Shown here: positions 1-16,123 of the stretch, in pieces | How positions within the stretch are numbered: position 1 is the first letter of the stretch | Layout: every line of letters starts with the position of its first letter | Assembly (NCBI RefSeq): GCF_000719705.1 | Contig: NZ_JOHO01000053.1 | Location: forward strand, 1 to 64,000 | Source of the DNA: Streptomyces sp. NRRL S-350 | GTDB lineage: Bacteria > Actinomycetota > Actinomycetes > Streptomycetales > Streptomycetaceae | Length of the DNA stretch: 64,000 bases | Direction: 5' to 3' | Notes under the pieces: model-generated | The model's database searches: none | Told to the model about the DNA's origin: nothing | Seen by the model: only the letters and a program-made list of their open reading frames with translations | Made by a program: the position numbers and the translations under genes

Positions 1-357
1 GATGACCGTCACGGGCCACCCCCGTCCGGCGCCCGCCGAAAGGCGATCCAGCTCACATCGCGGTGACTTTCCGTAACGATCGATGGCGCCGACGACGGGT
101 GGGACGGGGGGGCGACCTCGGGAAGGTCGTCGGACGCGGCGCGCTGCAGGACGTCGGCGGCCGTGGGACCGCCGGACGCTGCCCCGGCACGGCGGCGCCG
201 CTCTCGTCGGGCGAGCGGAGCGGTCCGGCCGCGACCCGGTGCGCGGTGGCCTCCGACGTCCCGTGGTCGGGCTGCGAGGCCCCACGGAGGAGGCCGCGTG
301 AACGCGGCGCGGTAAGCGCGACGCGGCCCGTCCGGCTTCCCCCGCGCCAGGGCCGCC
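1..357. other. Gene-free left edge
   Basis: No convincing gene is seen. Open frames on both strands are Arg/Pro/Ala-rich readings of GC-rich DNA without family resemblance or a ribosome binding site. The stretch is simply the 3' flank of the LysR gene that ends at 358; a gene ending left of the window cannot be excluded. Confidence 0.5.
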
Positions 358-1251
358 TCAGGCGGTCGACACGATTGCCCGGGTGACGGCCGTGATCGCC
401 GGGGTGGTCCGGCCGGGGAGTCGCGCGACGAGGACCCGGCGGATCTCCGGAGGTGCGCCTTCGACGTGCAGCAGGCTCACCCCGGCGGGCAGCACCGGCG
501 AGAGCCGCGAGGGCGCTGTCGTCACTCCGAAGCCGCCGGCGACCAGGTGGAGCTTCGTCAGCCAGTCGCGCGCGCGGTGGACGATGTGCGGCCGCCCGGG
601 CAGACCGGGCCAGACACCGAGCAGTGGCTCGGAGTCCGACGCCGGGGTGGCGATCCACGGGGCGTCGACCAGTTCGTCGACGTGCACGGTGGTGCGGCCG
701 GCGAACGCGCCCGCCGAAGGCGCCGCCACAACCAGTTCGGTGTCCGCGACGGTCTCGACGTGCAGGCGCGGAGACTCGCCGTCCACGGGCCGGTGGGGCG
801 GGCGGGACGTCAGGACGGCGAGGTCGATCGAGCCCGCGCGCAGTGCCCGGACCAGGGTGGGCGTGGCGCCGTCGGTGGTCGTCACCGTGATCCGCGGGTC
901 GGTTGCCGCGAGGCGGGCGAGCGTGGTGGGCAGGATGGCCGCGCCCGCGCTCAGGAACAGCCCCAGCCGCACCGGTTCGGTCCGCGGGACGGTGCCGGTG
1001 AGGTCACGCTCGGCGGCCGTGAGGCAGTCCAGGATCGTGTGGGCGTGGCGCAGCAGGGTCAGACCCGCGGGGGTGAGCCGCACTCCGCCGGGGTGGCGTT
1101 CGAACAGGGCGGTGCCGGCGCTTCGTTCGAGGGAGGCGGCCTGGCGTGAGACCGCCGACTGGGTGTAGCCGAGCCGGGCGGCCGCTGCGGTGAAGCTGCC
1201 GCACTCGGCGATCTGCTGCAGGACCCGCAGGCCCGCGCTGGAGATGTCCAT
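358..1251 (-). CDS. LysR-family transcriptional regulator
   Basis: The protein of about 297 residues has the LysR layout: an N-terminal winged helix-turn-helix (about residues 1-60, with FTAAAARLGYTQSAVSRQ followed by LERSAGTALFERHPGGVRLT) and a C-terminal periplasmic-binding-like effector domain. The start at MDIS (1251) matches where family members normally begin; an upstream in-frame start at 1269 would add six residues. It is divergent from the alcohol dehydrogenase at 1405, the classic arrangement of a LysR activator and its target, so regulation of that gene by this protein is the simplest inference. The effector is unknown. Confidence 0.9.
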   Translation of the reverse strand: MDISSAGLRVLQQIAECGSFTAAAARLGYTQSAVSRQAASLERSAGTALFERHPGGVRLTPAGLTLLRHAHTILDCLTAAERDLTGTVPRTEPVRLGLFLSAGAAILPTTLARLAATDPRITVTTTDGATPTLVRALRAGSIDLAVLTSRPPHRPVDGESPRLHVETVADTELVVAAPSAGAFAGRTTVHVDELVDAPWIATPASDSEPLLGVWPGLPGRPHIVHRARDWLTKLHLVAGGFGVTTAPSRLSPVLPAGVSLLHVEGAPPEIRRVLVARLPGRTTPAITAVTRAIVSTA

Positions 1252-1404
1252 GCGTTGTACGCATACCACACATGCGCGATCGTCGCTTCCCGCATGCCCT
1301 CCGGGCTCCTAGTGTCGATCACGACGGAGCCGGACGGACAACGCGCGGACAGCGCGCGGACGACGCTCGCACGACGCACGACGGACGAACACGGAGGCCA
1401 TCAC
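1252..1404. promoter_or_regulatory. Divergent promoter region, LysR / dehydrogenase
   Basis: This 153-bp gap separates two head-to-head genes and must hold both promoters and any LysR site. A -10-like TAGTGT lies at 1310-1315 on the plus strand; no good -35 partner is visible. The GGAGG ribosome binding site of the dehydrogenase is at 1393-1397. Confidence 0.4.
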
Positions 1405-2499
1405 ATGCGAGCAGCGGTTCTCACGCAGTTCGGTGCCCCGCTCACGGTGCGGGAGGTACCCGACCCCGAGGCCGGCGGCGGTGAGGTGCTGGTCGAAGTC
1501 CTCGCCGCCTACGTGGCCCCGTACGCCGCGGAGATCTTCGGCGGCGAGCGGAACTACCCCCTGGTCCCTCCGGTCGTGCCCGGGATCGGCGGCGTCGGAC
1601 GGGTCGTCCACGCGGGCCCGGACGCCACCCGGCTGCGCCCCGGCGACCTGGTGTGGTGCGACTGCACGGTGCGCTCGCGCGACGACGCCCTGACGCCCGA
1701 CATCACGCTCCAGGGCTGGAGCTCCCGCGGCGAGGGCGGCGCCCGCCTCGCCCGGTACCTGCACGACGGGTCGTTCGCCGAGCTCATGCGGGTCCCGACG
1801 GAGAACGTCTTCCCGCTGCCCGCGGCGGCTGGGGACGACCCGGCCCGCTGGGCCGCGCTCGGCGTGCACGTCATCGCCTACGGCGGGCTGCTGGCCGGCG
1901 GGCTCGCGGCCGGCGAGACGCTGCTCGTCAGCGGGTCCACCGGCAACCTCGGCAGCAGTGCGGTCGCGGTCGCCCTCGCCATGGGGGCGGGCCGGGTCGT
2001 CGCCCCGGGCCGCAACCGGGCCGCGCTCGACCTCCTCTCCGACCGGTTCGGTCCGCGGGTACGCCCGGTCCCGCTCACCGGGGACGAGGCCCGCGACCGG
2101 GCGGCGATGTCCGCGGCGGCCGGCGGTCCGGTCGACATGGTGATCGACCTGCTACCGCCGAGCGCACCCAGCGCGGCGGCGCGCACGGCCGCCATGACCG
2201 TGCGCGAGTACGGCCGCGTCGTCCTCATGGGCGGCGTCGGCATGCTCGGTGGCGACGACCTCGCCCTCCCGTACCCGTGGATCATGCGCAACTCGATCAC
2301 CGTGCGCGGCCAGTGGATGTACCCGCGCACCGCCAACGTCGGCATCATCCGACTCCTCGCCTCGGGCGCCCTGGACCTCGCCCCGGAACGGGTCCGTGCC
2401 TTCGGCCTCGATGCCGTCAACGACGCCGTCGCGTACGCCGCCTCCCACGGAGGCCCGTTCGACCGCACCGCCCTTGTCCCCCGGCAGCCGGGCAGGTAG
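1405..2499 (+). CDS. Zinc-independent alcohol dehydrogenase / quinone reductase (MDR family)
   Basis: About 364 residues. The N-terminal GroES-like fold is shown by MRAAVLTQFGAPLTVREVPDP and PVVPGIGGVGRVVHAG; the Rossmann domain has SGSTGNLGSSAVAVALAMGA, a variant of the nucleotide-binding GxGxxG loop. Typical zinc ligands are not obvious, so it is closer to the quinone-oxidoreductase side of the medium-chain family; the substrate is unknown. I chose ATG 1405 because the family starts there and GGAGG sits at 1393-1397; the frame is open upstream to 1255 but that extension has no family resemblance. Divergent from, and probably controlled by, the LysR regulator. Confidence 0.88.
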   Translation: MRAAVLTQFGAPLTVREVPDPEAGGGEVLVEVLAAYVAPYAAEIFGGERNYPLVPPVVPGIGGVGRVVHAGPDATRLRPGDLVWCDCTVRSRDDALTPDITLQGWSSRGEGGARLARYLHDGSFAELMRVPTENVFPLPAAAGDDPARWAALGVHVIAYGGLLAGGLAAGETLLVSGSTGNLGSSAVAVALAMGAGRVVAPGRNRAALDLLSDRFGPRVRPVPLTGDEARDRAAMSAAAGGPVDMVIDLLPPSAPSAAARTAAMTVREYGRVVLMGGVGMLGGDDLALPYPWIMRNSITVRGQWMYPRTANVGIIRLLASGALDLAPERVRAFGLDAVNDAVAYAASHGGPFDRTALVPRQPGR

Positions 2500-2709
2500 G
2501 CGCGGGCCGCGAGACCGGGGCGGACCTCGTCGCCTGCCCAGGCTGGCGCGTGCCGGCGCAACTCCGCCCGAGTGCGGCCGAGCAGGTGGACCCGTACCCC
2601 ACAGGTCCGGCCCCGGGGCCTGGGGCGGACGACCAGGGCGGGCGGCCGGGTCGGGCGCCTTCCCCACCTGTCAGCCGGGGCAGACGGTACCCGCCGGGTA
2701 GAGGACGAG

Positions 2710-3836
2710 CGGCTGACCCCCGCGGGTGCGGGGAGGAGGGACGACCACCGCCACGCCACCGAAGCGGCATCGGCTGACCCCCGCAGGTGCGGGGAGGAGC
2801 CGGTCACCGGATCCACGTCGACGGTTGGCACCGGCTGACCCCCGCGGGTGCGGGGAGGAGCCCAGCCAGCGGATCCAGGCGCCGAGTATCTGCGGCTGAC
2901 CTCCGCGTGTGCGGGGAGGAGGGCGCCTTGCCTCGTCAGCGTGGGTCAGAGTGTGGCTGCCCCCCGCGGGTGCGGGGAGGAGATCGTGGGCCTGATCATG
3001 TTCCTGCTCGCCTGCGGCTGACCCCCGCAGGTGCGGGGAGGAGCTGGCCAGGACCGCGACCTTGGCCTCCATGCGCGGCTGACCCCCGCAGGTGCGGGGA
3101 GGAGAGTGGGTGGGCACCCGTGACTCAGGTGGAGGTCGGCTGACCCCCGCAGGTGCGGGGAAGAGTCCTTCACCCACCACTCAGACATGCCGAGGGCCGG
3201 CTGACCCCCGCAGGCGCGGGGAGGAGGCCCCCACGGTGATGGTCGACGTCGCCAGCACCGGCTGACCCCCGCAGGCGCGGGGAGGAGACCAACGTGCCGC
3301 CGTTCCCGGGGGCGGACGCCGGCTGACCCCCGCAGGCGCGGGGAGGAGTTCCCCTTCCCCGCTGAACAGCCCGAGGATGGCGGCTGACCCCCGCAGGCGC
3401 GGGGAGGAGTCCGGGGTGACGGGCGCGGTGTCGGGCAGCATCGGCTGACCCCCGCAGGCGCGGGGAGGAGCCGCAGCAGCACACGGCGACGACGACGGCC
3501 GGCGGCTGACCCCCGCAGGCGCGGGGAGGAGACCTTGATCCGCACGCTGCGCTCGGTGTCGAGCGGCTGACCCCCGCAGGCGCGGGGAGGAGGCTCGCCA
3601 GAGCCACCTCGGGCTGCACCACCTCGGCTGACCCCCGCAGGCGCGGGGAGGAGGAAACCCTGTGGAACTACCAGGGCGACCTGGCCGGCTGACCCCCGCA
3701 GGCGCGGGGAGGAGGAGAGCAGCAGGGCCAGCGGGTCCACCCGCCACGGCTGACCCCCGCAGGCGCGGGGAGGAGGGCCATCAGGCGCTCTCCTTCGTGT
3801 GGGGGTGCGGCTGACCCCCGCGGGTGCGGGGAGGAG
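2710..3836 (-). CRISPR. CRISPR array 1, type I-E, 19 repeats and 18 spacers
   Basis: Nineteen 29-bp repeats start every 61 bp (2710, 2771, 2832 ... 3747, 3808), leaving eighteen 32-bp spacers, the exact I-E geometry. On the plus strand each reads CGGCTGACCCCCGC, two to three variable bases, then GCGGGGAGGAG; the crRNA sense is therefore the minus strand and the leader lies on the right. Repeats fall in blocks: ten from 3198 to 3775 carry CGCAGGCGCG, four carry CGCAGGTGCG, and a few, including the leader-proximal one at 3808, carry CGCGGGTGCG. Repeats at 2893 and 2954 are more degenerate, as expected at an old leader-distal end. All open frames across the array are repeat artefacts. Confidence 0.98.
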
Positions 3837-3930
3837 GCTTCGTGACCTGCGGCGTTCTAGCCGGTTTGCAACTTCTTGACCATGTGGGAGGTGCGGCTGA
3901 TGCCCAGTGTCCAGGTGTCAAGGAGCGCCT
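3837..3930 (-). promoter_or_regulatory. Leader of CRISPR array 1
   Basis: Read on the minus strand, the sequence entering the first repeat shares the 17-mer CGCCGCAGGTCACGAAG and a GGTCAAGAA block with the leader of array 2. A CCTTGACACC element (TTGACA at 3921-3916) is also present in both leaders and is a candidate -35 box or integration-host binding element. The two leaders are clearly homologous, so both arrays can in principle be served by the same Cas1-Cas2. Confidence 0.8.
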
Positions 3931-4317
3931 ACATGATGCCATGGGCGGTGAAGGTGGGTTCGGCGGTCGGGGGCGGGTGGGGGCTCCTGCTGAGTCTCGG
4001 TGGAGGGGCTAGAAGGGGGTGCTCTTTGCCGAGGGCTGAGCAGGTAGATGCGCGCGATCCGTCGGCGGTGGTGGTCCTGCCGCTGTGGGGGCCGACCTGA
4101 TCGCAGAAGTCCGAACCGGTGCCGTGCCTGCCCAGAAGGTGGCCAAAAGCTCCAACCTAGGGGGTGGTTGGGCCTGACTGGCAGTGTCTGAATTCGTTAC
4201 GCGAACTACCCGTACGCGCTCGTCGGGTGCCGATGACGTCGGACGATGCGGCGGGGGCCTGTCGGCCCGGCCCCTCGCCCGTTCCCGGATCCGATGTGCG
4301 GGCCGTGAGGATTGTCA
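3931..4317. other. Gene-free gap between leader 1 and cas3
   Basis: No gene is supported here; short open frames lack family resemblance. It should hold the promoter of cas3. A partial palindrome GTTACGCGAAC near 4196-4206 and a GTGAGGA ribosome binding site at 4304-4310 are the only elements noticed. Confidence 0.4.
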
Positions 4318-7167
4318 GTGGTAGCTGATAGATCCTCAGGCATGAACGAGAGCGCGCCTGTTGGCGGCTTCGAGCCGGTCGGTCCCGACTCCCGCCTGTG
4401 GGGAAAGAGTGCCGGCCTGCCCGGTCCGTACCCCGTGATCTGTCACCTTCTGGACACGGCCGCCGCCGCTGGCGCGCTGTGGGACGCGGTCCTGAGCCGG
4501 CGCGTGCGGGCGCGGATCGCCGGGGCGGTGGGCGTCAGTGAGGGCGACGCCCGGGTGATGGTGATGCTGTGGGCCGGGCTCCACGACATCGGGAAGATCT
4601 CGCTGCACTTCCAGCAGCAGGTCGCCGAGGAGTTCGCGAAGCTGGCGCAGGACCCGGCGTACGCGGAGGACAATCCGGCGGCGAGGCGTAGCGGGAACCT
4701 GAGGCACGAGACGGCCACGCACTGGGGGCTGGTGGAGTTCTTCAAGCAGTGCGGCTATCCGCTCCACAGGCCGGTCGGGAAGTCGCCGGCCCACCAGATC
4801 GCCCAGCTGCTCGGCGGGCACCACGGATGCTTCGCCCCCGCGCTGCAGGTGAAGCAGATCAACAATCCGTCGGGCTATCAGCCCGCTCTCGGCGCTGCCG
4901 AGGGCTGGCGGGGCCAGCGGCTCGCACACGCCCACGCGGTCCGTCGGGCGGTCGGGAGCGACAAGCCGCCGGAGTCGGTGCTGCCCGGTGAGGTGGCGGT
5001 GGTGGTCGCCGGGCTGGTCGTGGTGGCCGACTGGTTGGCCAGCCAGGTCGACGTCATCGAGCCGCGGATGCCTGGGGAGGACTGGAGGACCGGGGACTCG
5101 GAGCTCGCCGAGCACTTCGAGGCGGCGGCCGGGGCCGCGCCGCGGTGGGTCCGCGAGGCCGGCCTCGGGCGGGCGGCGTTTCCGGACCGGCCCTTCACAC
5201 AGCAGTTCCCGTTCCCCCCGAACAAGCTCCAGGCCGACGTCGCGGAGTACCTGCCCGGGGTGGTGAAGGGGCCCGGACTGCTGCTGGTCACAGCCCCGAC
5301 CGGGGACGGCAAGACCGAGACGGCCCTGCACGCGGCCTCCGTGATCGCGAGGGCTTCGGGTGCCTCCGGGGTCTACTTCGCACTGCCGACGATGGCCACG
5401 GCGGACGCGATGTTCACCCGGGTCCGCAGGTTCGCCAAGGACAACGTCGAGGGCGATCGCGCGCTCACACTGCTGCACGGCATGGCCTGGCTCAGCCCGG
5501 ACTACGCCCCGGGGGAGGGAACGACGGACGGGTCGGCCGTTCTCGCGGACACCGAGGCCGGCCAGTGGCTGCGCACCGGTCGGCGGGGCCTGCTCGCACC
5601 GCTCGCCAACGGCACCGTCGACCAGGCCCTCACCGGGGTACTGCCGGTCCGCTACGGCTTCCTGCGGCTCTTCGGCCTGTCGAACAAGGTACTGGTGGTG
5701 GACGAGGCGCACGCCTACGGCCCGTGGATGCACAGCCTGCTGGTGCGGCTGCTGGAATGGCTCGGTGCCTTCGGCGCGCCGGTCGTGCTGCTGTCGGCGA
5801 CCCTGACCGGCAACGCGGCGTCGTCGCTCGTCGACGCCTACCGGCGCGGTGCGGGCTTCCGTGAGCCGTCCGCGGTGGAGCCCTGCTATCCGGGCTGGCT
5901 CTTCGTGGACGCGGGCAGCGGCGAGGTGTCCACGCCGCGCGAGGTGGGCAGCAGCCGTGCCCGAACCCTGCGTGTGGAGACCCGTCGGGTGCACTGGGAC
6001 GTCCAGGACCGGGGCGTCGTGAAGAAGCCCGGAGTGCAGGGGCGGCGTGACGCCCTGCGCGAGATCCTCGCTCCGGTCACCACCGAAGGAGGCTGCGTCC
6101 TGGTCTGCTGCACCACCGTGGACGAAGCCCAGCGCACCTACCGCTACCTGGAGTCGGTCCTGCCCCAGCTCGCCGCGCGTGACGGCGGCCTGCGGCTGCT
6201 GCACTCCCGCTATCCCGCCCACGAGCGGCAGCGCATCACCACCGAGTGCGAGGCCGCGTACGGGAAGCCCGCGAACGACGCGGCGGCGGCCACCCCGCGT
6301 GAGGGGTCGATCCTGGTGGCCACCCAGATCGTCGAGCAGTCGCTCGACCTCGACTTCGACCTGATCGTCTCGGACCTCGCGCCGCTCGCGCAGCTCCTGC
6401 AGCGGGCCGGCCGCGGCAAGCGCCACGACCGCCCCGACCGCCCTGCGTGGACCGGCCCGGCCACCGAGCCGCGCATGATCGTGCTCGAACCGCTCGATGA
6501 CAAGGGCCGCGTGGCTGCGCCCCGATCGTGGGGCACCGTCTACGACGCATCCCTGCTGCGCCGCACCGGTCTGCTCCTCGAAGACCGGGCCGACGGTGGG
6601 GTCGAGGTCCCGGGAGACGTCCAGAAGCTCGTGGACGAGGTCTACGCGGACGACTTCGGGGCAGGGCTGGAGAAGGCCGCCTCGCGGGAACTCGAGCGGA
6701 TGGACGCCGAGCGCATCGCCTCGGCTGCCGCCGAGGAGCAGCTGGCGGAGATCACCGTGATCCCGGCACCGTACGACGTGGTCGGCGACCTCTCCCGACT
6801 CAGCGAGCGTGGCTTCGCCGTCGCGGACGACCTGCTGACCACGCGCCTCGGCGCGGACAGCGGCCGTGCCGTGTGCGTCTTCGAACGGGGGAACGGATGG
6901 AGCCTCGATCCCGACCGCGACGTTCCGCTGCCCACAGCGGCGGCGAACCGGGACGAGATCGCGCTGATCATGCGGCACACCGTGCCGCTGCCCGGTCGCT
7001 GGCTCGCCGGCCGCACGGAGGAGAACGAAGTGCCGAAGGCCTGGAACGACCGGCCCCTGCTCACCGACCTGGCACTGCTGCGCGTGCGCCGCAGGGGTGA
7101 CCAGTGGACGGGTCGGCTGGGGGAGCGGCGGCTCGTGTACTCGAAGGTGGGAATATCCGAGAACTAG
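4318..7167 (+). CDS. cas3: CRISPR-associated helicase-nuclease Cas3 (type I-E)
   Basis: A single-chain Cas3 of about 949 residues. An N-terminal HD nuclease domain has LWAGLHDIGKISLHFQ near residue 90 and GGHHG further on. An SF2 helicase domain follows: Walker A TAPTGDGKTETAL, DEAH box VVDEAHAYGPWM, ATLTG, and the C-terminal motifs ATQIVEQSLDLDFDLIVSDL and QRAGRGKRH. It is recruited by target-bound Cascade and degrades the displaced strand. I prefer GTG 4318, eight bases after GTGAGGA; TTG 4312 is too close to that site and ATG 4342 is an alternative. It is separated from the rest of the operon by 215 bp containing the mini-CRISPR described below. No inactivating change is visible. Confidence 0.95.
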   Translation: MVADRSSGMNESAPVGGFEPVGPDSRLWGKSAGLPGPYPVICHLLDTAAAAGALWDAVLSRRVRARIAGAVGVSEGDARVMVMLWAGLHDIGKISLHFQQQVAEEFAKLAQDPAYAEDNPAARRSGNLRHETATHWGLVEFFKQCGYPLHRPVGKSPAHQIAQLLGGHHGCFAPALQVKQINNPSGYQPALGAAEGWRGQRLAHAHAVRRAVGSDKPPESVLPGEVAVVVAGLVVVADWLASQVDVIEPRMPGEDWRTGDSELAEHFEAAAGAAPRWVREAGLGRAAFPDRPFTQQFPFPPNKLQADVAEYLPGVVKGPGLLLVTAPTGDGKTETALHAASVIARASGASGVYFALPTMATADAMFTRVRRFAKDNVEGDRALTLLHGMAWLSPDYAPGEGTTDGSAVLADTEAGQWLRTGRRGLLAPLANGTVDQALTGVLPVRYGFLRLFGLSNKVLVVDEAHAYGPWMHSLLVRLLEWLGAFGAPVVLLSATLTGNAASSLVDAYRRGAGFREPSAVEPCYPGWLFVDAGSGEVSTPREVGSSRARTLRVETRRVHWDVQDRGVVKKPGVQGRRDALREILAPVTTEGGCVLVCCTTVDEAQRTYRYLESVLPQLAARDGGLRLLHSRYPAHERQRITTECEAAYGKPANDAAAATPREGSILVATQIVEQSLDLDFDLIVSDLAPLAQLLQRAGRGKRHDRPDRPAWTGPATEPRMIVLEPLDDKGRVAAPRSWGTVYDASLLRRTGLLLEDRADGGVEVPGDVQKLVDEVYADDFGAGLEKAASRELERMDAERIASAAAEEQLAEITVIPAPYDVVGDLSRLSERGFAVADDLLTTRLGADSGRAVCVFERGNGWSLDPDRDVPLPTAAANRDEIALIMRHTVPLPGRWLAGRTEENEVPKAWNDRPLLTDLALLRVRRRGDQWTGRLGERRLVYSKVGISEN

Positions 7168-7190
7168 CGTCATAGGCACCGCACTTGACG
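7152..7190. promoter_or_regulatory. Putative cse1 operon promoter overlapped by a Cascade target site
   Basis: A -35-like TTGACG lies at 7185-7190. On the minus strand the sequence just downstream of the trinucleotide AAG (7186-7184) begins TGCGGTGCCTA (7183-7173), identical to the first 11 bases of the pseudo-spacer at 7300-7269. AAG is the canonical I-E PAM. Matching continues at positions 13, 14, 16 and 17 and then stops, so pairing would be seed-limited. Such pairing usually lets Cascade bind without triggering Cas3. The target also covers the last codons of cas3. No convincing -10 box was found, so the promoter call itself is weaker than the seed match. Confidence 0.6.
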
Positions 7191-7238
7191 ATACGTTGGC
7201 TGAGCTGGTCCCGGGCAGGAGAGTCGCCCGTCCGGGCC

Positions 7239-7331
7239 CGGCGTGACCCCCGCTTGCGCGGGGACAGGTCTGCCGACACGGCCGCTTCCTAGGCACCGCA
7301 CGGCTCACCCCCGCTCGCTCGCGGGGATCGC
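7239..7331 (-). ncRNA. CreR-like crRNA-resembling RNA from a degenerate mini-CRISPR
   Basis: Two degenerate repeats flank a 32-base pseudo-spacer. ORF analysis gives nothing here. Pseudo-repeat 7301-7331 has the stem CCCCGC/GCGGGG and, in minus-strand sense, ends in GTGAGCCG, one base from the GTCAGCCG handle of the real repeats. Pseudo-repeat 7239-7268 keeps TGACCCCCGC and GCGCGGGGA but has a one-base insertion. In minus-strand sense a -10-like TAGGCT (7341-7336) lies just before the first pseudo-repeat, so the RNA could start at its edge. Cas6e could process it, and its seed matches the adjacent promoter region with an AAG PAM. I infer an RNA that directs Cascade to repress the cas operon (CreR type) or a hidden toxin RNA (CreA type). 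Confidence 0.65.
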
Positions 7332-7382
7332 GCAGAGCCTACCCACCCTGTGATCACCCGCACTCGCCTCGCCGGAGGCCGC

Positions 7383-8995
7383 ATGACATCCGCACCACCC
7401 GCCTACAACCTCCTCGACGAACCGTGGATCCCCGTCCGCTGGATCCCCGTCCGCTGGATCCCCGGCCAGGAGACGAACGACACGGCGAACTCCGCCACCA
7501 CCTACCCGCCCAAGGTCGGACTGCGCGAACTCCTGCTGCGCGCACACGAGATCGAGCAGATCGAGATCGCGGTCCCGCCGGCCCTCTCCGCGCTGTACCG
7601 CATCCTGTACGCGATCACCGCCCGTGTGACCGAACTCGACGAAGCCGGTCCCGGCGACTGGTCCGAGCGCCGCGACGATCTGGTCACCACGGGAAGCTTC
7701 GGCGAGGAGCAGGTCGCCCGGTACGTCACGCCGATCCACGGCCGCTTCGACCTCTTCGATGCCGAGAGGCCCTTCCTGCAGGACCCGCGGCTGGTCGACC
7801 AGTGCGACCCGGCGAACACCGCCGGCGTCGACAAGCTCATCACCACCCGGCCCTCGGGCAACAACCACTCCTGGTTCGTGCACGTCAACAGCACCGCACC
7901 CGAGCTGCCCACGCCCGACCAGGCCGTCCTGCACCTGCTCGTCTGGCACTACTACGGCCCCTCCGGACGGTGCTCCAGCCGGACAGTCGGCGGTACCAAG
8001 GCGGCCGGCAGCAAGGCCGGACCGCTGCGAAGCACGCTCTCCTACCACCCGGAGGGCGAGACGCTGTTCGAGACTCTGCTCGCCGGACTTCCCGAACCCG
8101 TCGGGGGCGTCTCCCGCGACAGCGACCTCTGCCCGTGGGAGCGGGACGAGCTGCCCGACCCCGTGGCCGCTCCGCCGCCCCTGAAGGGCCCGTGCTCCGA
8201 ACTCACCGCCCGCTCCCAGCACGCCCTGCTGCTCGTACCCGACACCACCGGCGCCCACGTCGAGGACGCGTTCATCACCTGGGCGAACCAACTCAAGGTC
8301 TCCCGCGAGGGTGACCTGTACCTGATCTGGCAGACCAGCAAGGAGGGCAACCCCTACCCCCGTCCCGCCGACTCCCGGCGCGCGCTGTGGCGCGACCTGG
8401 ACGCCCTGCTGCTCAACGACCCCGCAGGCAGCGCCCGGCCACGGCGCCCGGAAGTGTTCCGCACCGCGCCGGAGGTCTCGGAGAAGCTGCGGGTACGCGC
8501 CTGGGATTCGAACAGGACGGGCAGGCCAAGGACATCCAGTTCGTCGACGCGGTCACCCCACCGGTCCTCGGGCTCGCCGAGGACACGGAACCCGCCGTCG
8601 CCGTCGAGATCGGCCGCCTGCGCGTTCTGGGGGAGCGGTACGGCAACCGGCTCGACCGGGCTGTCAAGAAGGCGTGGGCCGGCTACACCACCGCCCCCAA
8701 GATCCGCGACTGCACCTGGGCCGTCGACGCCGCGGCCCGCTACTGGCCCGCCGCCGAGGCCGAGTTCTGGAAGCGCCTCGACGAACGCGACTTCGACGGC
8801 GCCGCCGTGGCCTTCCGCGTCCTCGCCGAGCAGGCCTACGACACCGTCACCTACGGCGCGCTGGGAACCATGCGCGGAGCCAAGGCCTGCACCACCGCCC
8901 GCATCGAGCTGTACGGCGGCCCGGTGAAGCGCCCGGCCAGGACCGGCGGTACCGGCGCGGCCGGCGGCCGCACCACCAGTACGGAGGACGCATGA
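7383..8995 (+). pseudogene. casA: Cascade large subunit Cse1/CasA (Cas8e), frameshifted
   Basis: The N-terminal part (YNLLDEPWIPVR, then RFDLFDAERPFLQDPRL) is typical Cse1, the subunit that recognises the PAM and recruits Cas3. The start at ATG 7383 follows CGGAGG at 7373-7378. After codon 8499-8501 the Cse1 sequence leaves this frame and resumes in the next as LGFEQDGQAKDIQFVDAV, ending at 8995. The pattern equals loss of one C in GCC-CTG near 8501. Read as is, the product ends with an unrelated Arg/Ser/Pro tail at 8927 and lacks the C-terminal helical bundle that contacts Cse2. A 15-bp tandem duplication (7425-7454) repeats WIPVR. A sequencing error in the C run, true inactivation, or -1 slippage are all possible. 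Confidence 0.85.
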
Positions 8996-9837
8996 GCACC
9001 ACGAACACCATCCCCGGGCCCGCCAAACCGGCGGACGACGCGGTCGGCACGCCGAGGGAGTCCTCCCTCATCCCCTCGCGGGAGCGGGCACGTGCCTTCG
9101 CCACCAGGATCGACGAGCGCAGCCACGAGGATCCCGGTGTCCGCGCCGCCCTGCGCCGTGGCGTCGGCAAGGACGTGGACGCGGTGCCGTTCATGCACCG
9201 CTACGTAGCCTCCTGGCTGACCGAGGAGCAGACGCGCAGCCGCGACGTCCAGCGCGCCTTCTACACCGTCGCCGCCCTGATCGCCGCGCAGCGCCGCGAC
9301 CAGTACGCCGCCGCGAAGGCCGAGACGTCGAGGAAGAGCGGGTCGAAGGACCAGCCGACGGGCGAGGAGGCGGCGGCCGCCGAGGCGGCGCCGGACGCGC
9401 CCGGCCGGCCCGCCGACCGGCCGGAGGACAAGGAACCCGGCGCCGCCAAGCGGATCCCGCCGCGCAGCCTCGGCCACGCCTTCGCTGAGGGTGTCCTGAA
9501 GGGCGGCCAGGCCGGAGGTCTGCGCGAGACCTCGGCCGAGACCCGCCTCAACCTGCTGAGCCGGCAGAGCGTCGACGGTCTGCACCGCCACCTGCCCGGA
9601 GCCGTCCGGCAACTGCGCGACAGCGACGTGGAGATCGACTGGGCCAGGCTGCTCATCGACCTCTGCCAGTGGCGGCGCCACTCCGGCGCCGTCAAGCGGA
9701 CCTGGCTCCAGGACTACCACCGGGCCCTGCAGAAGGACGGCGAGCGCCGGGCCCGCGAGCACGACGACGACCAGGACGACGCGACGGACACCGCCGCCGA
9801 CACCGACGGCACGGACGGCACCGCCCCCGAGGCCTGA
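8992..9837 (+). CDS. casB: Cascade small subunit Cse2/CasB
   Basis: About 281 residues, overlapping the cse1 stop by ATGA (8992-8995), so it is translationally coupled to it. Cse2 features are the helical N-terminal part (FMHRYVASWLTEEQTRSRDVQRAFYTVAALIA) and the C-terminal ETRLNLLSRQSVDGLHRHLPGAVRQLRD followed by IDWARLLIDLCQW. The subunit forms the inner dimer of Cascade that stabilises the R-loop. It is longer than most Cse2 proteins: an Ala/Glu/Pro-rich stretch separates the two conserved halves (about residues 105-155) and an acidic Asp-rich tail ends the protein. Both additions look disordered and probably do not disturb the fold. Confidence 0.9.
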   Translation: MSTTNTIPGPAKPADDAVGTPRESSLIPSRERARAFATRIDERSHEDPGVRAALRRGVGKDVDAVPFMHRYVASWLTEEQTRSRDVQRAFYTVAALIAAQRRDQYAAAKAETSRKSGSKDQPTGEEAAAAEAAPDAPGRPADRPEDKEPGAAKRIPPRSLGHAFAEGVLKGGQAGGLRETSAETRLNLLSRQSVDGLHRHLPGAVRQLRDSDVEIDWARLLIDLCQWRRHSGAVKRTWLQDYHRALQKDGERRAREHDDDQDDATDTAADTDGTDGTAPEA

Positions 9838-9919
9838 GGACCCCACCGTCGAGCCGTCGAGGCCTGAGCGCCCCGACCCCGTACGGACCCACCGCACACG
9901 CCGAACCCAGGAGCAGAGC

Positions 9920-11113
9920 ATGCCCGGCCCCGACCGCACCACCGCCCGCTTCCTCGACATCCACGTCGTCCAGAGCGTCCCGTTCGCCAACCTCAACCGC
10001 GACGACAACAATTCCGTCAAGACCGTCCGGTACGGCGACACCGAGCGCACCCGCGTCAGCAGCCAGTCCTGGAAGCGCGCCGTCCGCGAGTACTTCCAGG
10101 ACAGCTTCGGCGAGCAGGCCCTGCGCACCCGCCGCATCGGCGCCCGCGTCACCCGCCTCCTCGAGGAGCAGCACGGCTGGCCCGCCCAGCTCGCCCAGCG
10201 CGCGGGCCAGCACGTCGCCGCCGGCAGCAGCATCAAGTTCGAGACGGCCAAGGACTCGCCCGTCATCACCACCAACGCCATGGTGTACGTGCCCGAGACC
10301 GCCGTCGCCGAACTCGCCGCGCTCGCCGAGAAGCACCGCGCCGACCTCGAGAGCGCCAAGGACATCAAGAAGGCCGGCGACAAGAGCGTCCTGCCCAAGG
10401 ACGCCGTCGACGCCATCCTGCGCAGCCGCAACGGCGTCATCAACCTCTTCGGCCGCATGCTCGCCGAAGTCGACGACGCCGGTGTCGACGGCGCCGTGCA
10501 GGTCGCCCACGCCCTCACCACCCACGGCACCGACGTCGAACTGGACTACTTCTCCGCGGTCGACGACGTCACCTCCGCCTGGGGCGACACCACCGGCAGC
10601 GCCCACATGGGCCACGCCGAGTTCAGCGCCGGCGTCTTCTACCGCTACGCCACCGTCGACCTCGCCGACCTGGAGAGCAACCTCGGCGGCGACCGCGAGG
10701 CCGCCCGCGAACTCGCCGCCGGGTTCGCCGAGGCCTTCATCCTCTCGCTCCCCCGCGCCAAGAAGACCGCGACGGCGCCCCACACCATCCCCGACCTCGT
10801 CCACATCGCCGTCCGCAGCGACCGCCCGCTCTCCTACGCCGCCGCCTTCGAACAGCCGGTCGACTCCCACGAGAACGGCGGGTACGGCTCCGCCTCCCGC
10901 GCGACCCTGGCCCGGTACGCCACCGCCGCCAACAAGCTCCTCGGCAAGCGCGGCACCGTCACCGCGGCCTGGGCGAGCCTCGAGGACAAGGACCTCGACG
11001 GCCTGGGCACCCGCGTCGACTCCTTCTCCCAGCTCGTCGACACCGCCGTCGACGCGGCCTTCACCCCCGCCCGCACCGATGCCGCCGGCGCCACCGCCGG
11101 AGCCGGCGCATGA
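9920..11113 (+). CDS. casC: Cascade backbone subunit Cas7 (Cse4/CasC)
   Basis: About 397 residues. The N-terminus FLDIHVVQSVPFANLNRDD and RVSSQSWKRAVREYF are hallmark Cas7e sequences, as are AHMGHAEFSAGVFYRYATVDL and the C-terminal RPLSYAAAFEQPV. Several copies line the crRNA spacer and form the Cascade backbone. ATG 9920 follows AGGAG by a few bases; an 82-bp gap separates it from cse2. The end overlaps cas5 by ATGA. The tail after about residue 380 is Ala/Thr-rich. No defect is visible. Confidence 0.95.
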   Translation: MPGPDRTTARFLDIHVVQSVPFANLNRDDNNSVKTVRYGDTERTRVSSQSWKRAVREYFQDSFGEQALRTRRIGARVTRLLEEQHGWPAQLAQRAGQHVAAGSSIKFETAKDSPVITTNAMVYVPETAVAELAALAEKHRADLESAKDIKKAGDKSVLPKDAVDAILRSRNGVINLFGRMLAEVDDAGVDGAVQVAHALTTHGTDVELDYFSAVDDVTSAWGDTTGSAHMGHAEFSAGVFYRYATVDLADLESNLGGDREAARELAAGFAEAFILSLPRAKKTATAPHTIPDLVHIAVRSDRPLSYAAAFEQPVDSHENGGYGSASRATLARYATAANKLLGKRGTVTAAWASLEDKDLDGLGTRVDSFSQLVDTAVDAAFTPARTDAAGATAGAGA

Positions 11114-11943
11114 GCACCCCCAGCCCCGCCCCCACCCGAGGACTGCTGCTGCGGCTGGCCGCGCCGCTGCAGTCCTGGGGCGAGACCGGCACGTTCAACG
11201 AGCGCGACACCGCGCCCTTCCCCACCCGCTCCGGCGTCATCGGCCTGCTCGCCGCGGCCCTCGGCCGGAAGCGGGGCGAGGACATCGACGACCTCGTCAC
11301 CCTCTCGCTGACCGTCCGCACCGACCGGGCGGGCGTCGTCCTGCGCGACCTGCACACCGTCGGCGGCGGCCTGCCCGCCGCCCGCACGGTCACCACCGCC
11401 GAAGGGAAGAAGCGCACCGGGGCCACCGCGACCCTGCTGTCCCACCGCTACTACCTCGCCGACGCCGCCTTCACCGCCGTCGTCACCACCGCGCACTCCG
11501 AAGACCTCGCCAGCTGGGCGGAGGCACTGCGCAACCCGCACTGGCCGCCCTACCTGGGACGTCGCTCCTGCCCGCCCGAGGGCCCACTGCTGCTCGGCCT
11601 GGTCGACGACCCCCTGCACCACCTCGTCCACCTGCCGATCGCCCGGCGGGCCCGCCCAGACAGCAAGAGCGTCGACGTCGTCTTCCACGGCGACCAGCCG
11701 CTCGACCGCCTCGGCGACCACCCCCAGCCCGGGAGCGACGACGGCAGCACCCCCGCCGGCGAAGTCACCGACGACCCCATCGACTTCCACCCCCGGCGAC
11801 GGGCCTACCGCGCCCGCCCCCGCTACCAGCGCACCCTCACCCTGCCCGCCGACCGCTGCAAGGGCCTCGCCGCCGGCTACCTGACCGCCCTCGGCGACTA
11901 CCTGACCCGGCACACCACCCGCCCGGAAAGCATCCCCGCATGA
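11110..11943 (+). CDS. casD: Cascade subunit Cas5e (CasD)
   Basis: About 277 residues. It opens with GLLLRLAAPLQSWGE and FNERDTAPFPTRSGVIGLLAAALG, the diagnostic Cas5e start, and has YLGRRSCPPEGPL in the middle. Cas5e holds the 5' handle of the crRNA and caps the Cas7 filament. It overlaps cas7 upstream and cas6e downstream by ATGA, showing one coupled operon. A loop rich in Asp, Gly and Pro around residues 205-225 precedes the conserved C-terminal strand region. Confidence 0.94.
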   Translation: MSTPSPAPTRGLLLRLAAPLQSWGETGTFNERDTAPFPTRSGVIGLLAAALGRKRGEDIDDLVTLSLTVRTDRAGVVLRDLHTVGGGLPAARTVTTAEGKKRTGATATLLSHRYYLADAAFTAVVTTAHSEDLASWAEALRNPHWPPYLGRRSCPPEGPLLLGLVDDPLHHLVHLPIARRARPDSKSVDVVFHGDQPLDRLGDHPQPGSDDGSTPAGEVTDDPIDFHPRRRAYRARPRYQRTLTLPADRCKGLAAGYLTALGDYLTRHTTRPESIPA

Positions 11944-12596
11944 CCACGTGGCTCACCCGCATCATCCCCGACCCCCGCAGCCGCGACGCCCGCCGCGACA
12001 CCGCCGGCGCCGTCGACCTGCACCACCGCATGATGTCGCTCTTCCCCGACCACGTCGCCGCCGACCAACCGCGCCGCAGGCTCGGCGTCCTCTTCCGCAC
12101 CGACCCCACGCCCGCCGGAGACCGGATCCTCCTCCAGAGCGCCGAGCGGCCCGACCTCGACCGCCTCCCCACGGGATACGGCCACGCCGTGACCAAGCCC
12201 CTCACCCCGCTCCTCGACGCCCTGCGGCCCGGCCTGAACATCCGCTACCGCATCGCCGCCAACCCGATCCGCAAGCCCGGCCGGGCCACCCGTGAGCTCT
12301 ACCGGCTCAAGGCCGTCGTCCCGCTCCAGGGCGTGGCCGCCGACGACTGGTGGGCCCGGCAGGCCAAGTCCTCCGGCCTCGACCTCGGCACCCTCCACTC
12401 CAGCCCCCTCGAAGCCGCCAAGGGCCACCGGCGTAGCGACCAACGGCCCGTCAAACACGACCGCGTCCTGTTCGAGGGCACCGCCGTCATCACCGACCCG
12501 GACCTCCTGCGCACCCGCCTCACCGAAGGCATCGGCAAGGGCAAGGCCTACGGCTGCGGCCTCCTCAGCATCGCCCCCCACCGGGGGCCCCGGTGA
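11940..12596 (+). CDS. casE: crRNA endonuclease Cas6e (CasE)
   Basis: About 218 residues. It starts MTTWLTRIIPDP and has DLHHRMMSLFPDH, where His28 or His29 corresponds to the catalytic histidine of Cas6e near the N-terminus. The glycine-rich loop GIGKGKAYGCGLLSI near the C-terminus binds the repeat hairpin. It cuts precursor crRNA in each repeat and stays bound to the 3' stem-loop. It should also be able to process the pseudo-repeat RNA at 7239-7331 because the stem is kept there. ATGA overlap upstream and GTGA overlap with cas1 downstream. Confidence 0.95.
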   Translation: MTTWLTRIIPDPRSRDARRDTAGAVDLHHRMMSLFPDHVAADQPRRRLGVLFRTDPTPAGDRILLQSAERPDLDRLPTGYGHAVTKPLTPLLDALRPGLNIRYRIAANPIRKPGRATRELYRLKAVVPLQGVAADDWWARQAKSSGLDLGTLHSSPLEAAKGHRRSDQRPVKHDRVLFEGTAVITDPDLLRTRLTEGIGKGKAYGCGLLSIAPHRGPR

Positions 12597-13579
12597 CCGC
12601 CCGCCGCCCCGACCCCGGCGCCGCCCGGCGCAGACTCGCCGCGCCCACCGTCGCCATGCTGCCCCGCGTCGCCGACTCCCTCTCCTTCCTCTACCGCGAC
12701 ATCGTCCGCATCGTCCAGGACGACACCGGCGTCTGCGCCGAGGTCACCAGCCCCCACCGCGGCACCGAGACCGTCTACCTGCCCACCGCCGCCCTCAGCT
12801 GCGTCCTCCTCGGCCCCGGCACCTCCATCACCGCCCGGGCCCTGACCACCTTCGCCCGCCACGGCACCACCGTCGTCATCGCCGGATCCGGCGCAGTCCG
12901 CTGCTACGCCGCCACCGTCCCCGAATCCCTCAGCACCACCTGGCTCGAACGCCAGGCCCGCGCCTGGGCGGACGACACCACCCGCCTGGCCGTCGCCCAC
13001 GCCATGTACGAGCAGCGCTTCGGCCCCGCCACCGCCCCGCCCGGCAGCGGCCTCGCACAGCTACGCGGCCTGGAAGGCCAACGAGTCAAGGCCCACTACC
13101 GGCTCCTCGCCCAGCAGCACCGCATCGGCCGCTTCCGCCGCAACTACGACCCGGGCTCCTGGGACACCCAGGACCCGGTCAACCAAGCCCTCTCCGCCGC
13201 CAACACCTGCCTCTACGGCATCGTCCACGCGGCCGTCCTCGCCCTCGGCTGCTCGCCGGCCCTCGGCTTCGTACACAACGGCAACCAGCAGGCGTTCGTC
13301 TACGACATCGCCGACCTGTACAAGGCCGAACTCACCATCCCGCTCGCCTTCTCCCTCCACGACTCCCCGCAGCCCGAAGCCGACGCCCGCCGAGGCTTCC
13401 GCGACCGCCTGCGCCTGTTCCGCCTACTGCCGCGCATCGTCACCGACATCCAGCGCCTGCTCGCCCCGGACCAGGACATCACCCTGCCCGACCCGGAGGA
13501 ACAGCTCGTCGACCTGTGGGACCCGGTCTCCGGCCCCATCCCGGGCGGGACCAACTACGCGGGGGAGGAACTGCTGTGA
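12593..13579 (+). CDS. cas1: CRISPR integrase Cas1 (type I-E)
   Basis: About 328 residues starting at a GTG that overlaps the cas6e stop (GTGA). The predicted metal ligands are Glu161 (LRGLEGQRVKAHY), His228 (GFVHNGNQQAF), Asp238 and Asp241 (YDIADLYKAE); their mutual spacing is the same as Glu141, His208, Asp218 and Asp221 in the E. coli enzyme. With Cas2 it inserts new spacers next to the leader. All catalytic residues are present, so adaptation could still work even if interference is impaired by the cse1 frameshift. Confidence 0.96.
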   Translation: MTARRPDPGAARRRLAAPTVAMLPRVADSLSFLYRDIVRIVQDDTGVCAEVTSPHRGTETVYLPTAALSCVLLGPGTSITARALTTFARHGTTVVIAGSGAVRCYAATVPESLSTTWLERQARAWADDTTRLAVAHAMYEQRFGPATAPPGSGLAQLRGLEGQRVKAHYRLLAQQHRIGRFRRNYDPGSWDTQDPVNQALSAANTCLYGIVHAAVLALGCSPALGFVHNGNQQAFVYDIADLYKAELTIPLAFSLHDSPQPEADARRGFRDRLRLFRLLPRIVTDIQRLLAPDQDITLPDPEEQLVDLWDPVSGPIPGGTNYAGEELL

Positions 13580-13622
13580 GGCCCGACCGGCCCGCACACC
13601 CGCACCCGGGAGGGGCGTACCC

Positions 13623-13964
13623 GTGGCGGCCATGACCGTCCTCTCCGTCACGGCGGTCCCCGACCACGTGCGCGGTGCCCTCACCCGCTGGCTCATCGAG
13701 GTCACACCCCAGCTGTACGTCGGCACCATCTCCGCCAAGGTGCGCGAGGAACTGTGGCAGGCCGTCAGCGGCTGCGTCGGAGCCGGCGTGGCGGTGCTGG
13801 TCCACACAGCGGCCAACGAGCAGGGCTTCGAACTGCGGACGGCAGGCGAGCAGCGACGGAAACCTGTGGACTTCGACGGGCTGACACTGGTCGCCATGGC
13901 GGGCTTGCAGACCGCTGAAGGTCAGGAAAAGGAAGAGACGCAGGAAGCCGCAGGCCAGACGTAG
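13623..13964 (+). CDS. cas2: CRISPR adaptation protein Cas2 (type I-E, CasX2e)
   Basis: About 113 residues with the I-E Cas2 signature MTVLSVTAVPDHVRGALTRW, LYVGTISAKVREELW and the C-terminal KPVDFDGLTLVA. It is the scaffold of the Cas1-Cas2 integration complex. I keep GTG 13623, about eight bases after GGGAGGG; ATG 13632 would trim three residues. The tail after DGLTLVA is Glu/Gln-rich and longer than usual. A 43-bp gap separates it from cas1. It is the last cas gene before leader 2. Confidence 0.93.
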   Translation: MAAMTVLSVTAVPDHVRGALTRWLIEVTPQLYVGTISAKVREELWQAVSGCVGAGVAVLVHTAANEQGFELRTAGEQRRKPVDFDGLTLVAMAGLQTAEGQEKEETQEAAGQT

Positions 13965-14297
13965 TTCGTCCCAGGCCAAAAGCGATCAGCCCCCATCCCG
14001 CAACGCTACAAGAGCGACTGGACCCGGAGTTCGGCTCGTGCTGGTGGGGGCAGCGGTTTTCGCTTCGATCACGTGGGCTCACCGCCACGAAAGGTGCTCT
14101 GCCCCCACCCGTCCATAAGGGCCGATCGGCGACCGGTGGATCGGCAGTGGCTCTCGCCAGGCCGACCGTGACACGATGCACGAGCGATCCTTGACACCCC
14201 GACAACTTGTGCGCCCGCCGGACGAAGCACCACTCAGCCCGGGCCGCCAACTGGTCAAGAAATAGCAAAGCCGATACTCCGCCGCAGGTCACGAAGT
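13965..14297 (+). promoter_or_regulatory. Leader region of CRISPR array 2
   Basis: Gene-free 333 bp between cas2 and the first repeat. The repeat-proximal part matches the leader of array 1: GGTCAAGAA, GCAAA, and CGCCGCAGGTCACGAAG ending at 14296. CCTTGACACC (TTGACA at 14191-14196) is shared too, though it lies about 20 bp further from the repeat than in leader 1. Frames reading through it are not coding. Confidence 0.8.
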
Positions 14298-14917
14298 GTC
14301 CTCCCCGCACCCGCGGGGGTCAGCCGCCCATGAGACCACCTCCTCTCAGGCGATGAACGTCCTCCCCGCACCCGCGGGGGTCAGCCGGCCAGGGTCGCGG
14401 GGCCGTCGCTGGCAGTTGCGTCCTCCCCGCACCCGCGGGGGTCAGCCGGTGTCGGTGAAATTGTCCGTGACCAGCGACCCGTCCTCCCCGCACCCGCGGG
14501 GGTCAGCCGGTCGAGAACGTCCCACCCGGGAAGACGGTCACGTCCTCCCCGCACCCGCGGGGGTCAGCCGGCGAGTACGAGGCCCTGGAACGCCAGCTCA
14601 ACGTCCTCCCCGCACCCGCGGGGGTCAGCCGCCCGCCCAGACGATCGCCAAGGAACGCGTCGTGGCCTCCCCGCACCCGCGGGGGTCAGCCGATGGTCGC
14701 CGAGGAGATGTCGCGCCTTCGGTCGTCCTCCCCGCATCCGCAGGGGTCAGCCGCGTGTGGGGCGGCCCATCTGGTGGACGGTCCAGTCCTCCCCGCACCC
14801 GCGGGGGTCAGCCGGAACTGCGAAGGACCTTGCGAAGGACTTCGTGGTCCTCCCCGCACCCGCGGGGGGCAGCCGTCGAGCGACGGCTTGGCGTTGGTGA
14901 GGTACTTGTCCTCCCCG
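14298..14917 (+). CRISPR. CRISPR array 2, type I-E, 10 repeats plus a truncated one
   Basis: Ten 29-bp repeats start every 61 bp from 14298 to 14847, with ten 32-bp spacers. The consensus begins GTCCTCCCCGCACCCGCGG and ends GGGTCAGCCG. Repeats at 14664, 14725 and 14847 carry substitutions, fitting decay away from the leader. An eleventh repeat at 14908 breaks off after ten bases (GTCCTCCCCG, to 14917). The leader is on the left, so the array grows toward cas2. The first repeat base is G here but C in array 1; otherwise the leader-proximal repeats of the two arrays agree. Confidence 0.97.
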
Positions 14918-15412
14918 TGACCGAGTCCATGGCGGTGAAGGCTTGCGAGGCATTTTCGTGCCGATGGCCCCCCAGGGTGGTGCATCGTCCGTTCGTCGTC
15001 GCCCGTATGGGTGTTGGGGCGTTGCCTGGGCTCAGTCCCGTAGCTCCGCGCACCCGACAGGCCTGTGGGCGCCGGTCCGAACCCGCGGCGGCCGCTTGGG
15101 TGGTGATCTGCGGGGCGCGGGCGGCTCCGATTCCGCCGGCGGCCCTCGCCCGTGGACCAGGGACGGCTGGATCACGTCGAGTAGCCCTTCGAGGCCACCC
15201 GCCCGCCACGGCGCGCCGATCGACCTGGACCACGTTCCCGCCGTCCGGCTCCGCATGGACCTCTGGCCGACCCGGAGGCTCAACTCCGTTGCAGCGTAGT
15301 GATTTTCGACCGTCCGTGTGCCGATACGCTGATCCGACGGCCACCTGCCGGGCTCGGGTCGCGATCGGGCACGGAGCCGCGGCCGACGGGGCGACCGGGA
15401 AGGCTGGTACGC
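14918..15412. other. Gene-free stretch after array 2
   Basis: From the truncated repeat to the next gene I see no convincing coding region. Open frames on both strands have low-complexity composition. The abrupt end of the array suggests a past deletion or recombination at 14917. Confidence 0.45.
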
Positions 15413-16021: not shown

Positions 16022-16123
16022 CGTCGCCCGCCGTCGCCGTCGCCGTCGCCGTTGCCGTCGCGTCGCCGCGCCGGGTGCGCCCGCGCCGGGTGCAACCGCC
16101 GCGGCGAGGCGGGCGCCGAGTGG

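What the first reader, a model, noticed from the sequence alone, without database searches (positions are those of the whole stretch)
7152..7331. CreR-like RNA: degenerate mini-CRISPR whose seed matches the cas operon promoter region with an AAG PAM
Between cas3 and cse1 lie two decayed repeats around a 32-base pseudo-spacer (minus-strand sense). Its first 11 bases, TGCGGTGCCTA, recur at 7183-7173, directly after AAG, the standard I-E PAM. Fifteen of the first 17 positions agree, then pairing ends. The site overlaps a TTGACG -35-like box ahead of cse1. A chance 11-base match at one defined register is 1 in about 4 million, and the PAM adds further constraint. Seed-limited pairing fits Cascade binding without Cas3 cleavage, as in published CreR autorepression and CreTA systems. 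An I-E example built on a streptomycete cse1 operon would be new to me. The -10 box was not found.
Basis: partly seen in the sequence, partly recalled or inferred. Interest (0 to 1): 0.95.

Follow-up and report, generated by a model that had tools for sequence, protein, structure and literature searches.

The report
Guide RNA that silences its Cascade
Between two CRISPR genes of this soil bacterium lies a tiny, worn CRISPR unit whose guide matches DNA at the predicted promoter of those same genes, so the CRISPR complex would likely turn down its own production; in dozens of relatives guide and target differ from species to species yet still match each other.

Summary
On the minus strand between cas3 and cse1 of a Kitasatospora-group type I-E locus, two degenerate repeats flank a 32-nt pseudo-spacer whose first 11 bases recur after an AAG PAM at 7183-7173. 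PAM plus seed occurs once in the 8.78-Mb assembly. Seeds differ (54 distinct among 61 pairs) yet agree with their targets. When one of 11 bases disagrees, it is position 6, the base Cascade flips out, in 46 of 58 pairs. In relatives pseudo-spacer lengths sit on a 6-nt grid (14, 20, 26, 32; 50 of 60). A TANNNT -10 follows the PAM in 14 of 16 loci of the window's layout (here TACGTT, 7192-7197). Best reading: CreR-type autorepression of the Cascade operon. CreR in type I-E is already described, so this is a new member of a known kind; natural truncated guides in relatives look new. No RNA or repression data exist, the blind held-out rate is lower (8 of 81), and this assembly's cse1 is frameshifted.

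The parts
7301..7329 (-). First (5') degenerate repeat R1; its last 8 nt GTGAGCCG would be the guide's 5' handle (array repeats end GTCAGCCG)
   Evidence: 20 of 29 match the array repeat GTCCTCCCCGCACCCGCGGGGGTCAGCCG; alone this is at chance level
7269..7300 (-). 32-nt pseudo-spacer TGCGGTGCCTAGGAAGCGGCCGTGTCGGCAGA; seed is its first 11 nt (7300-7290)
7240..7268 (-). Second degenerate repeat R2 (CCTGTCCCCGCGCAAGCGGGGGTCACGCC), predicted Cas6e stem-loop at the guide's 3' end
7184..7186 (-). PAM AAG
   Evidence: AAG is the acquisition PAM of the type I-E system of S. avermitilis (PMC4762764, passages)
7152..7183 (-). Target protospacer; seed match 7183-7173; overlaps the last 16 bases of cas3
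7192..7197 (+). Predicted -10 (TACGTT) of the cse1-operon promoter, 5 nt beyond the PAM complement
   Evidence: TANNNT within 0-8 nt after CTT in 14 of 16 loci of this layout (not L053, L057); background probability 0.039
7207..7239 (-). GC-rich hairpin after R2, terminator-like for the guide RNA; imperfect in the window, a long single stem of differing sequence in L003-L008, L011, L124 and L133
7336..7341 (-). Predicted -10 (TAGGCT) of the guide RNA, 6 nt before R1
   Evidence: TAGGCT just before R1 in 9 of 16 loci of this layout: L002-L009 and L011
4312..7167 (+). cas3
   Evidence: Pfam Cas3_HD and Cas3 C-terminal models
7383..8992 (+). cse1 (casA), interrupted by a frameshift near 8501
   Evidence: Pfam CRISPR_Cse1 on both pieces; profile positions 1-357 at 7395-8504 and 357-518 at 8501-8989 in another frame
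8992..13964 (+). cse2 8992-9837, cas7 9920-11113, cas5 11110-11943, cas6 11940-12596, cas1 12593-13579, cas2 13623-13964
2710..3836 (-). CRISPR array, 61-bp period
14298..14875 (+). CRISPR array, 61-bp period

Best explanation
The degenerate mini-CRISPR at 7329-7240 (minus strand) has a guide whose seed matches an AAG-flanked site beside the predicted cse1 promoter, and it is predicted to make a CreR-type RNA that, loaded into Cascade, would bind there and likely repress the Cascade operon (cse1 to cas2). Steps. (1) Transcription from TAGGCT (7341-7336) across R1, spacer and R2 to the hairpin at 7239-7207: inferred from conserved elements. (2) Cas6e processing and loading into Cascade: inferred; supported in relatives by spacer lengths on a 6-nt grid and by the free position 6. 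(3) PAM plus 11-nt seed match at 7186-7173: shown as sequence, and shown to be kept between species while the letters differ. (4) Cascade covers the DNA just upstream of the -10 (7192-7197) and blocks RNA polymerase, including read-through from cas3: inferred. (5) Pairing ends by about position 17, so Cas3 is not engaged: inferred, consistent with the E. coli finding that more than 18 bp are needed for interference. (6) Ordinary crRNAs or anti-CRISPRs that draw Cascade away would release the promoter, as reported for CreR: inferred by analogy. In this layout cse1 transcription runs antisense through the guide gene, so a derepressed operon might in turn lower the guide (speculative).
For: Pairing kept across species: first detector, minus strand 59 of 159 distinct regions, plus strand 0 of 159; shuffled regions 0-4 of 159 per round, 20 rounds, both strands, with an earlier unmasked form. 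Second detector (generic stem; written after looking at misses): 71 of 240 minus, 2 plus; minus union of both 83 of 240. Position 6: scoring any 10 of 11, the single mismatch is at position 6 in 46 of 58 distinct minus pairs, 1 of 5 on plus. In 61 pairs positions 6 and 12 match at chance (0.21 vs 0.19; 0.20 vs 0.21). Every sixth crRNA base is flipped out in type I-E Cascade (PMC5904413, passages). Lengths of 14, 20, 26 or 32 nt in 50 of 60 measured spacers, with at least 5 changes among them on a FastTree Cse1 tree (34 rows with these states, 140 in all). TANNNT -10 in 14 of 16. Target unique in the assembly. In the other layout 30 of 50 loci have an in-frame cse1 start within 30 nt of the PAM.
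Against: No RNA, binding or expression data. This assembly's cse1 carries a frameshift near 8501; if it is no sequencing error, Cascade here is likely crippled. In E. coli, off-target Cascade binding did not change nearby transcription, and promoter occlusion was greatly reduced with six or more PAM-distal mismatches (PMC5904413, passages); here about 15 distal bases do not pair. The detector was designed on the Kitasatospora loci; on the 81 held-out regions, mostly other families, it found only 8 on minus and 2 on plus, and several of the 8 lie 130-560 nt from cse1. 157 of 240 regions show no minus-strand element by either detector, including L010 (K. cheerisanensis) of the closest group; by eye L035 and L055 look truly empty, L016 and L169 are near misses. 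The -35 was not identified, and 2 of 16 loci lack the -10 box.
Confidence: 0.87

Rival explanations
1. A decayed remnant: a once-acquired self spacer, or a stray two-repeat array, with no present function.
For: Repeats are degenerate (R1 20 of 29, no better than shuffled DNA gives about 5 times per 64 kb); cse1 is frameshifted here; two further two-repeat units lie at 25223 and 33048 without an exact AAN seed target in the window.
Against: Seed and target stay matched while differing between species, on one strand, with AAN PAM, and disagree mainly at position 6. A remnant would lose the match at all positions alike.
Confidence: 0.06
2. The repeated 11-mer is an operator for a DNA-binding protein, or the minus-strand RNA acts as a plain antisense RNA on the cse1 5' leader.
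For: In this layout the RNA would be antisense to the predicted cse1 leader (about 7204-7382).
Against: The detectors find one copy behind a repeat-like 3' end and the other behind AAN, on minus far more than on plus; relatives show a 6-nt length grid. In the commoner layout (46 of 61 distinct pairs) the target lies between guide gene and cse1, so the guide is not in the leader.
Confidence: 0.03
3. A CreTA-like unit: the repressed promoter drives a toxic RNA or peptide and makes the host depend on Cascade.
For: Same guide logic; 185 nt lie between the -10 and cse1 in the window, with two unannotated plus-strand ORFs of 35 and 36 codons over the mini-array, not tested for toxicity; in 20 of 50 loci of the other layout more than 30 nt lie between PAM and the first in-frame cse1 start.
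Against: In 30 of 50 loci of the other layout the PAM lies within 30 nt of an in-frame cse1 start, leaving no room for a toxin gene (a few of these starts are far ahead of the match and may not be the true ones).
Confidence: 0.04

Closest known systems
CreR, cas-regulating RNAs (types I-B, I-E, V-A; passages of PMC12737573, PMC13131331 and PMC12948488)
   Same: crRNA-like RNA from a mini-CRISPR; partial complementarity to the promoter of its own cas operon; no toxin gene
   Different: Here in Kitasatospora, Streptomyces and other Actinomycetota type I-E loci; lies antisense inside the cas3-cse1 gap; two layouts that follow two Cse1 clades; guides of 14, 20 and 26 nt in the other layout. Whether the primary CreR paper (recalled, not read) lists any of these could not be checked.
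CreTA / CreA antitoxin guides (PMC9458426: start of abstract seen; PMC12948488: passages)
   Same: Degenerate repeats, Cascade-guided repression by partial complementarity
   Different: Target lies at the predicted cas promoter and not at a toxin promoter; no toxin identified
E. coli Cascade off-target binding (PMC5904413, abstract and passages)
   Same: AAG plus a short seed is enough for binding; position 6 matters less
   Different: There the binding was transcriptionally inert and position 6 still matched above chance (45%); here the site is at a predicted promoter and position 6 matches at chance
Cascades with altered crRNA length (PMC6828817 and PMC7296934, passages)
   Same: Three to six Cas7 reported with altered crRNAs; spacer is a multiple of six nucleotides in the complex
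   Different: Those crRNAs were altered by experimenters; here short guides occur in nature in relatives (the window has 32 nt). Type I-E Cascade with spacers cut by 6 or 12 nt still supported slowed Cas3 cleavage, so shortening alone would not abolish it

Membership tests
CreR | Mini-CRISPR with degenerate repeats beside a cas operon | tested here: met
   R1 and R2 at 7329-7240 between cas3 and cse1; R1 likeness alone is at chance level, relatives keep the stems
CreR | Limited, seed-side complementarity to the cognate cas promoter | tested here: met
   15 of 17, then only scattered matches; predicted -10 just beyond the PAM, conserved in 14 of 16. That it is a promoter is predicted
CreR | Proper PAM at the target | tested here: met
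   AAG in the window; minus-strand seed matches stand behind AAG in 30, AAC in 20, AAT in 7 and AAA in 3 loci, the next trinucleotides being CAA 6 and GCG 3
CreR | Guide and target conserved as a pair | tested here: met
   61 distinct pairs from 67 loci, 54 distinct seeds ignoring position 6
CreR | RNA is transcribed, processed and bound by Cascade | not testable with these tools
   Only indirect: 6-nt length grid and free position 6 in relatives
CreR | Cascade-dependent repression of the cas operon | not testable with these tools
   Needs a reporter or RNA-seq
CreTA | Guide represses a toxin gene or toxic RNA | tested here: inconclusive
   No toxin identified; two small ORFs of unknown meaning overlap the mini-array; 30 of 50 loci of the other layout leave no room. 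A toxic RNA cannot be excluded by sequence
Type I-E CRISPR-Cas (host system) | cas3-cse1-cse2-cas7-cas5-cas6-cas1-cas2 with 29-nt repeats and 61-bp period | tested here: met
   cse1 frameshifted

The most novel reading that the evidence does not exclude
Actinomycete type I-E systems carry a lineage-wide class of self-repressing guides in two layouts. In one of them evolution has cut the guide in exact Cas7 steps (32, 26, 20, 14 nt), building sub-size Cascades dedicated to transcriptional repression: the first natural use of truncated Cascade, with position 6 left free as the fingerprint of the complex. In the window's layout, guide gene and cas operon overlap in opposite directions and would form a two-way switch.
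Probability: 0.5. Interest if true: 0.87.

Novelty: new member of a known kind. Interest (0 to 1): 0.74.

Why it matters
It indicates that many actinomycete type I-E systems may carry a built-in guide that sets their own dose. It also provides dozens of natural guide/target pairs that can be read as an evolutionary experiment on what Cascade needs at such a site: PAM, positions 1-5 and 7-11, not 6 or 12, and in part of the family guide lengths in steps of six. Removing the guide could raise native type I-E activity for genome editing in Streptomyces and Kitasatospora, and the truncated guides suggest compact native repressors.

Tried and rejected
Rfam scan of 1-18000: no family at gathering score. 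tRNA scan: none. CreTA reading: no toxin identified, not excluded. First detector runs without masking arrays were swamped by array repeats on the plus strand (106 of 166 hits) and were replaced by the masked one. The detector was shaped on the Kitasatospora loci, so 59 of 159 is not a blind count; the held-out set is: 8 of 81 on minus, 2 of 81 on plus; of the 8, L232 and L242 look less clean, and L241-L250 have targets far from cse1. The second detector was written after looking at 14 misses. At 10 of 11 the plus strand gave 6 loci of 240 against 71 on minus. Some regions are gene fragments (e.g. L022, L025, L216, L219) and, where kept, count as misses; near-duplicate regions were dropped before counting (194 to 159; to 81). 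Lengths: 5 of 65 distinct spacers could not be measured; 10 of 60 lie off the grid (21, 31, 33, 35, 39), and 33 is common in ordinary arrays too; related loci share lengths, hence the tree count of 5 changes (FastTree, several long branches flagged). Seed patterns of the second mini-CRISPR: two genome sites, not examined. Papers: the primary CreR paper is recalled only, not found in the library and not read. Searches behind 'not found in print' for actinomycete CreR or natural truncated guides; they show only what this open library holds.
Full report
What is there. The window is part of an 8.78-Mb assembly in 253 contigs; the genus is taken to be Kitasatospora because same-genus genomes have contigs of the same lengths as named Kitasatospora records. 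It holds a type I-E locus: array (2710-3836), cas3, cse1, cse2, cas7, cas5, cas6, cas1, cas2, array (14298-14875). Between cas3 and cse1, on the minus strand, two degenerate repeats (7329-7301 and 7268-7240) flank a 32-nt pseudo-spacer (7300-7269). Its first 11 bases recur at 7183-7173 after AAG. Matches run 1-11, 13, 14, 16 and 17, then only scattered.

More than chance. The PAM-plus-seed pattern occurs once in the whole assembly. With the seed fixed, shuffled intergenic DNA never gave AAG plus 10 of 10 seed bases in 20,000 trials. None of 26 stretches behind exact repeat ends in the window has such a match there. The likeness of R1 to the array repeat (20 of 29) is by itself no more than shuffled windows give (about 5 per 64 kb).

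Pairing kept in relatives. A Cse1 search in 70 same-genus genomes found 21 with a match. In nine of the ten loci with Cse1 at 67% identity or more (L002-L009, L011; not L010), the gap holds a mini-array and an AAG-flanked seed match, but the seed itself differs. A second, distant Cse1 group of the same genus (31-33% identity) has its own version with PAM AAC and the target between guide and cse1 (L015, L017-L020 and L024 pass the strict detector; L016 is a near miss, L023 has no mini-array). Surveys of 394 family, 396 phylum and 394 class genomes (overlapping sets; 169, 21 and 71 with a match), extra regions and 80 named loci gave 240 distinct cse1-upstream regions (159 in the first set; 81 held out).

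Counts. First detector: 59 of 159 minus, 0 of 159 plus. It was shaped on the Kitasatospora loci, so the blind figure is the held-out one: 8 of 81 minus, 2 of 81 plus. The two plus cases, L267 and L272, look like genuine guides in the other orientation. Second detector, made after seeing misses: 71 of 240 minus, 2 plus; union 83 of 240 minus. Shuffles of the first 159 with an unmasked form: 0-4 per round. The named loci with a strict hit include Streptomyces, Nocardiopsis, Nonomuraea, Umezawaea and Actinomadura, and two metagenome-assembled genomes labelled Nitriliruptoria and Chloroflexi.

Fingerprints of Cascade. Counting any 10 of 11 matches, the one mismatch sits at position 6 in 46 of 58 distinct minus-strand pairs and in 1 of 5 on plus. 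Among 61 pairs found without using position 6, it matches in 13, as expected by chance; position 12 likewise. Type I-E Cascade flips out every sixth base, though the same E. coli study saw position 6 match above chance at off-target sites (PMC5904413, passages). Pseudo-spacer lengths, which no detector used, are 14 (10), 20 (17), 26 (2) and 32 (21), in all 50 of 60 on a 6-nt grid; ten are off it and five could not be measured. On a Cse1 tree the grid lengths change at least 5 times and the two layouts separate with 1 change. Three to six Cas7 have been reported with altered crRNAs in E. coli and T. fusca (PMC6828817, passages). The window's own guide has the full 32 nt; short guides were seen only in the other layout.

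Promoters. In the window's layout a TANNNT box follows the PAM complement within 0-8 nt in 14 of 16 loci (background 0.039), so the protospacer covers DNA just upstream of the predicted -10. A TAGGCT box precedes R1 in L002-L009 and L011. A GC hairpin follows R2; it is a long stem of differing sequence in L003-L008, L011, L124 and L133, imperfect in the window and weak in L041, L045 and L050.

Mechanism and doubts. The likely function is Cascade-guided repression of the Cascade operon with too little pairing for Cas3: in E. coli as few as 5 bp suffice for binding and more than 18 bp are needed for interference and priming (PMC5904413, abstract and passages). The same paper warns that off-target binding was transcriptionally inert and that distal mismatches weaken occlusion. 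Type I-E Cascades with spacers cut by 6 or 12 nt still support slowed cleavage (PMC7296934, passages), so the short guides of relatives would be kept from cutting mainly by their short pairing. CreR-type autorepression with partial promoter complementarity is nevertheless reported for type I-E (PMC13131331, one passage; PMC12737573, passages). The cse1 frameshift near 8501 leaves the activity of this strain's system open.

Known or new. It works like CreR and meets the CreR features that can be tested from sequence; transcription and repression could not be tested. The kind is known. The actinomycete family, its two layouts and the truncated guides were not found in the papers searched, but the primary CreR paper was not available. 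A term search in PMC9458426 found none of 'type I-E', 'cas operon' and related terms. AAG as the acquisition PAM of a streptomycete type I-E system is from PMC4762764 (passages).

Noticed in passing
window 25223-25312 (+): A second two-repeat mini-CRISPR far from cas genes: repeat (25 of 29), 32-nt spacer (25252-25283), repeat (22 of 29). AAG plus seed occurs at two other places in the assembly, C1 and C23, not examined.
   Followed up: partly
window 33048-33123 (+): Two degenerate repeats (24 and 22 of 29) 18 nt apart; no AAN seed target in the window.
   Followed up: partly
window about 8501 (+): cse1 is split by a frameshift; the same-genus relatives L003-L010 translated read through there. 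Error or real loss is open.
   Followed up: partly
window 7425-7464: A 15-bp in-frame tandem repeat (2.7 copies) lengthens the start of Cse1 (WIPVRWIPVRWIPG) relative to, e.g., L003 (WIPVRWIPG).
   Followed up: no
window 7272-7282 (-): The non-pairing half of the pseudo-spacer holds a short inverted repeat (GCCG tgt CGGC); similar but different ones are visible by eye in L005, L007 and L011.
   Followed up: no
   Followed up: no
L023 and L046: By eye L023 keeps a target-like site but no mini-array, and L046 a mini-array without a visible target: possible losses of one partner.
   Followed up: no
L267, L272 upstream of cse1: Guides with AAG seed targets on the plus strand, i.e. co-directional with cse1.
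   Followed up: no
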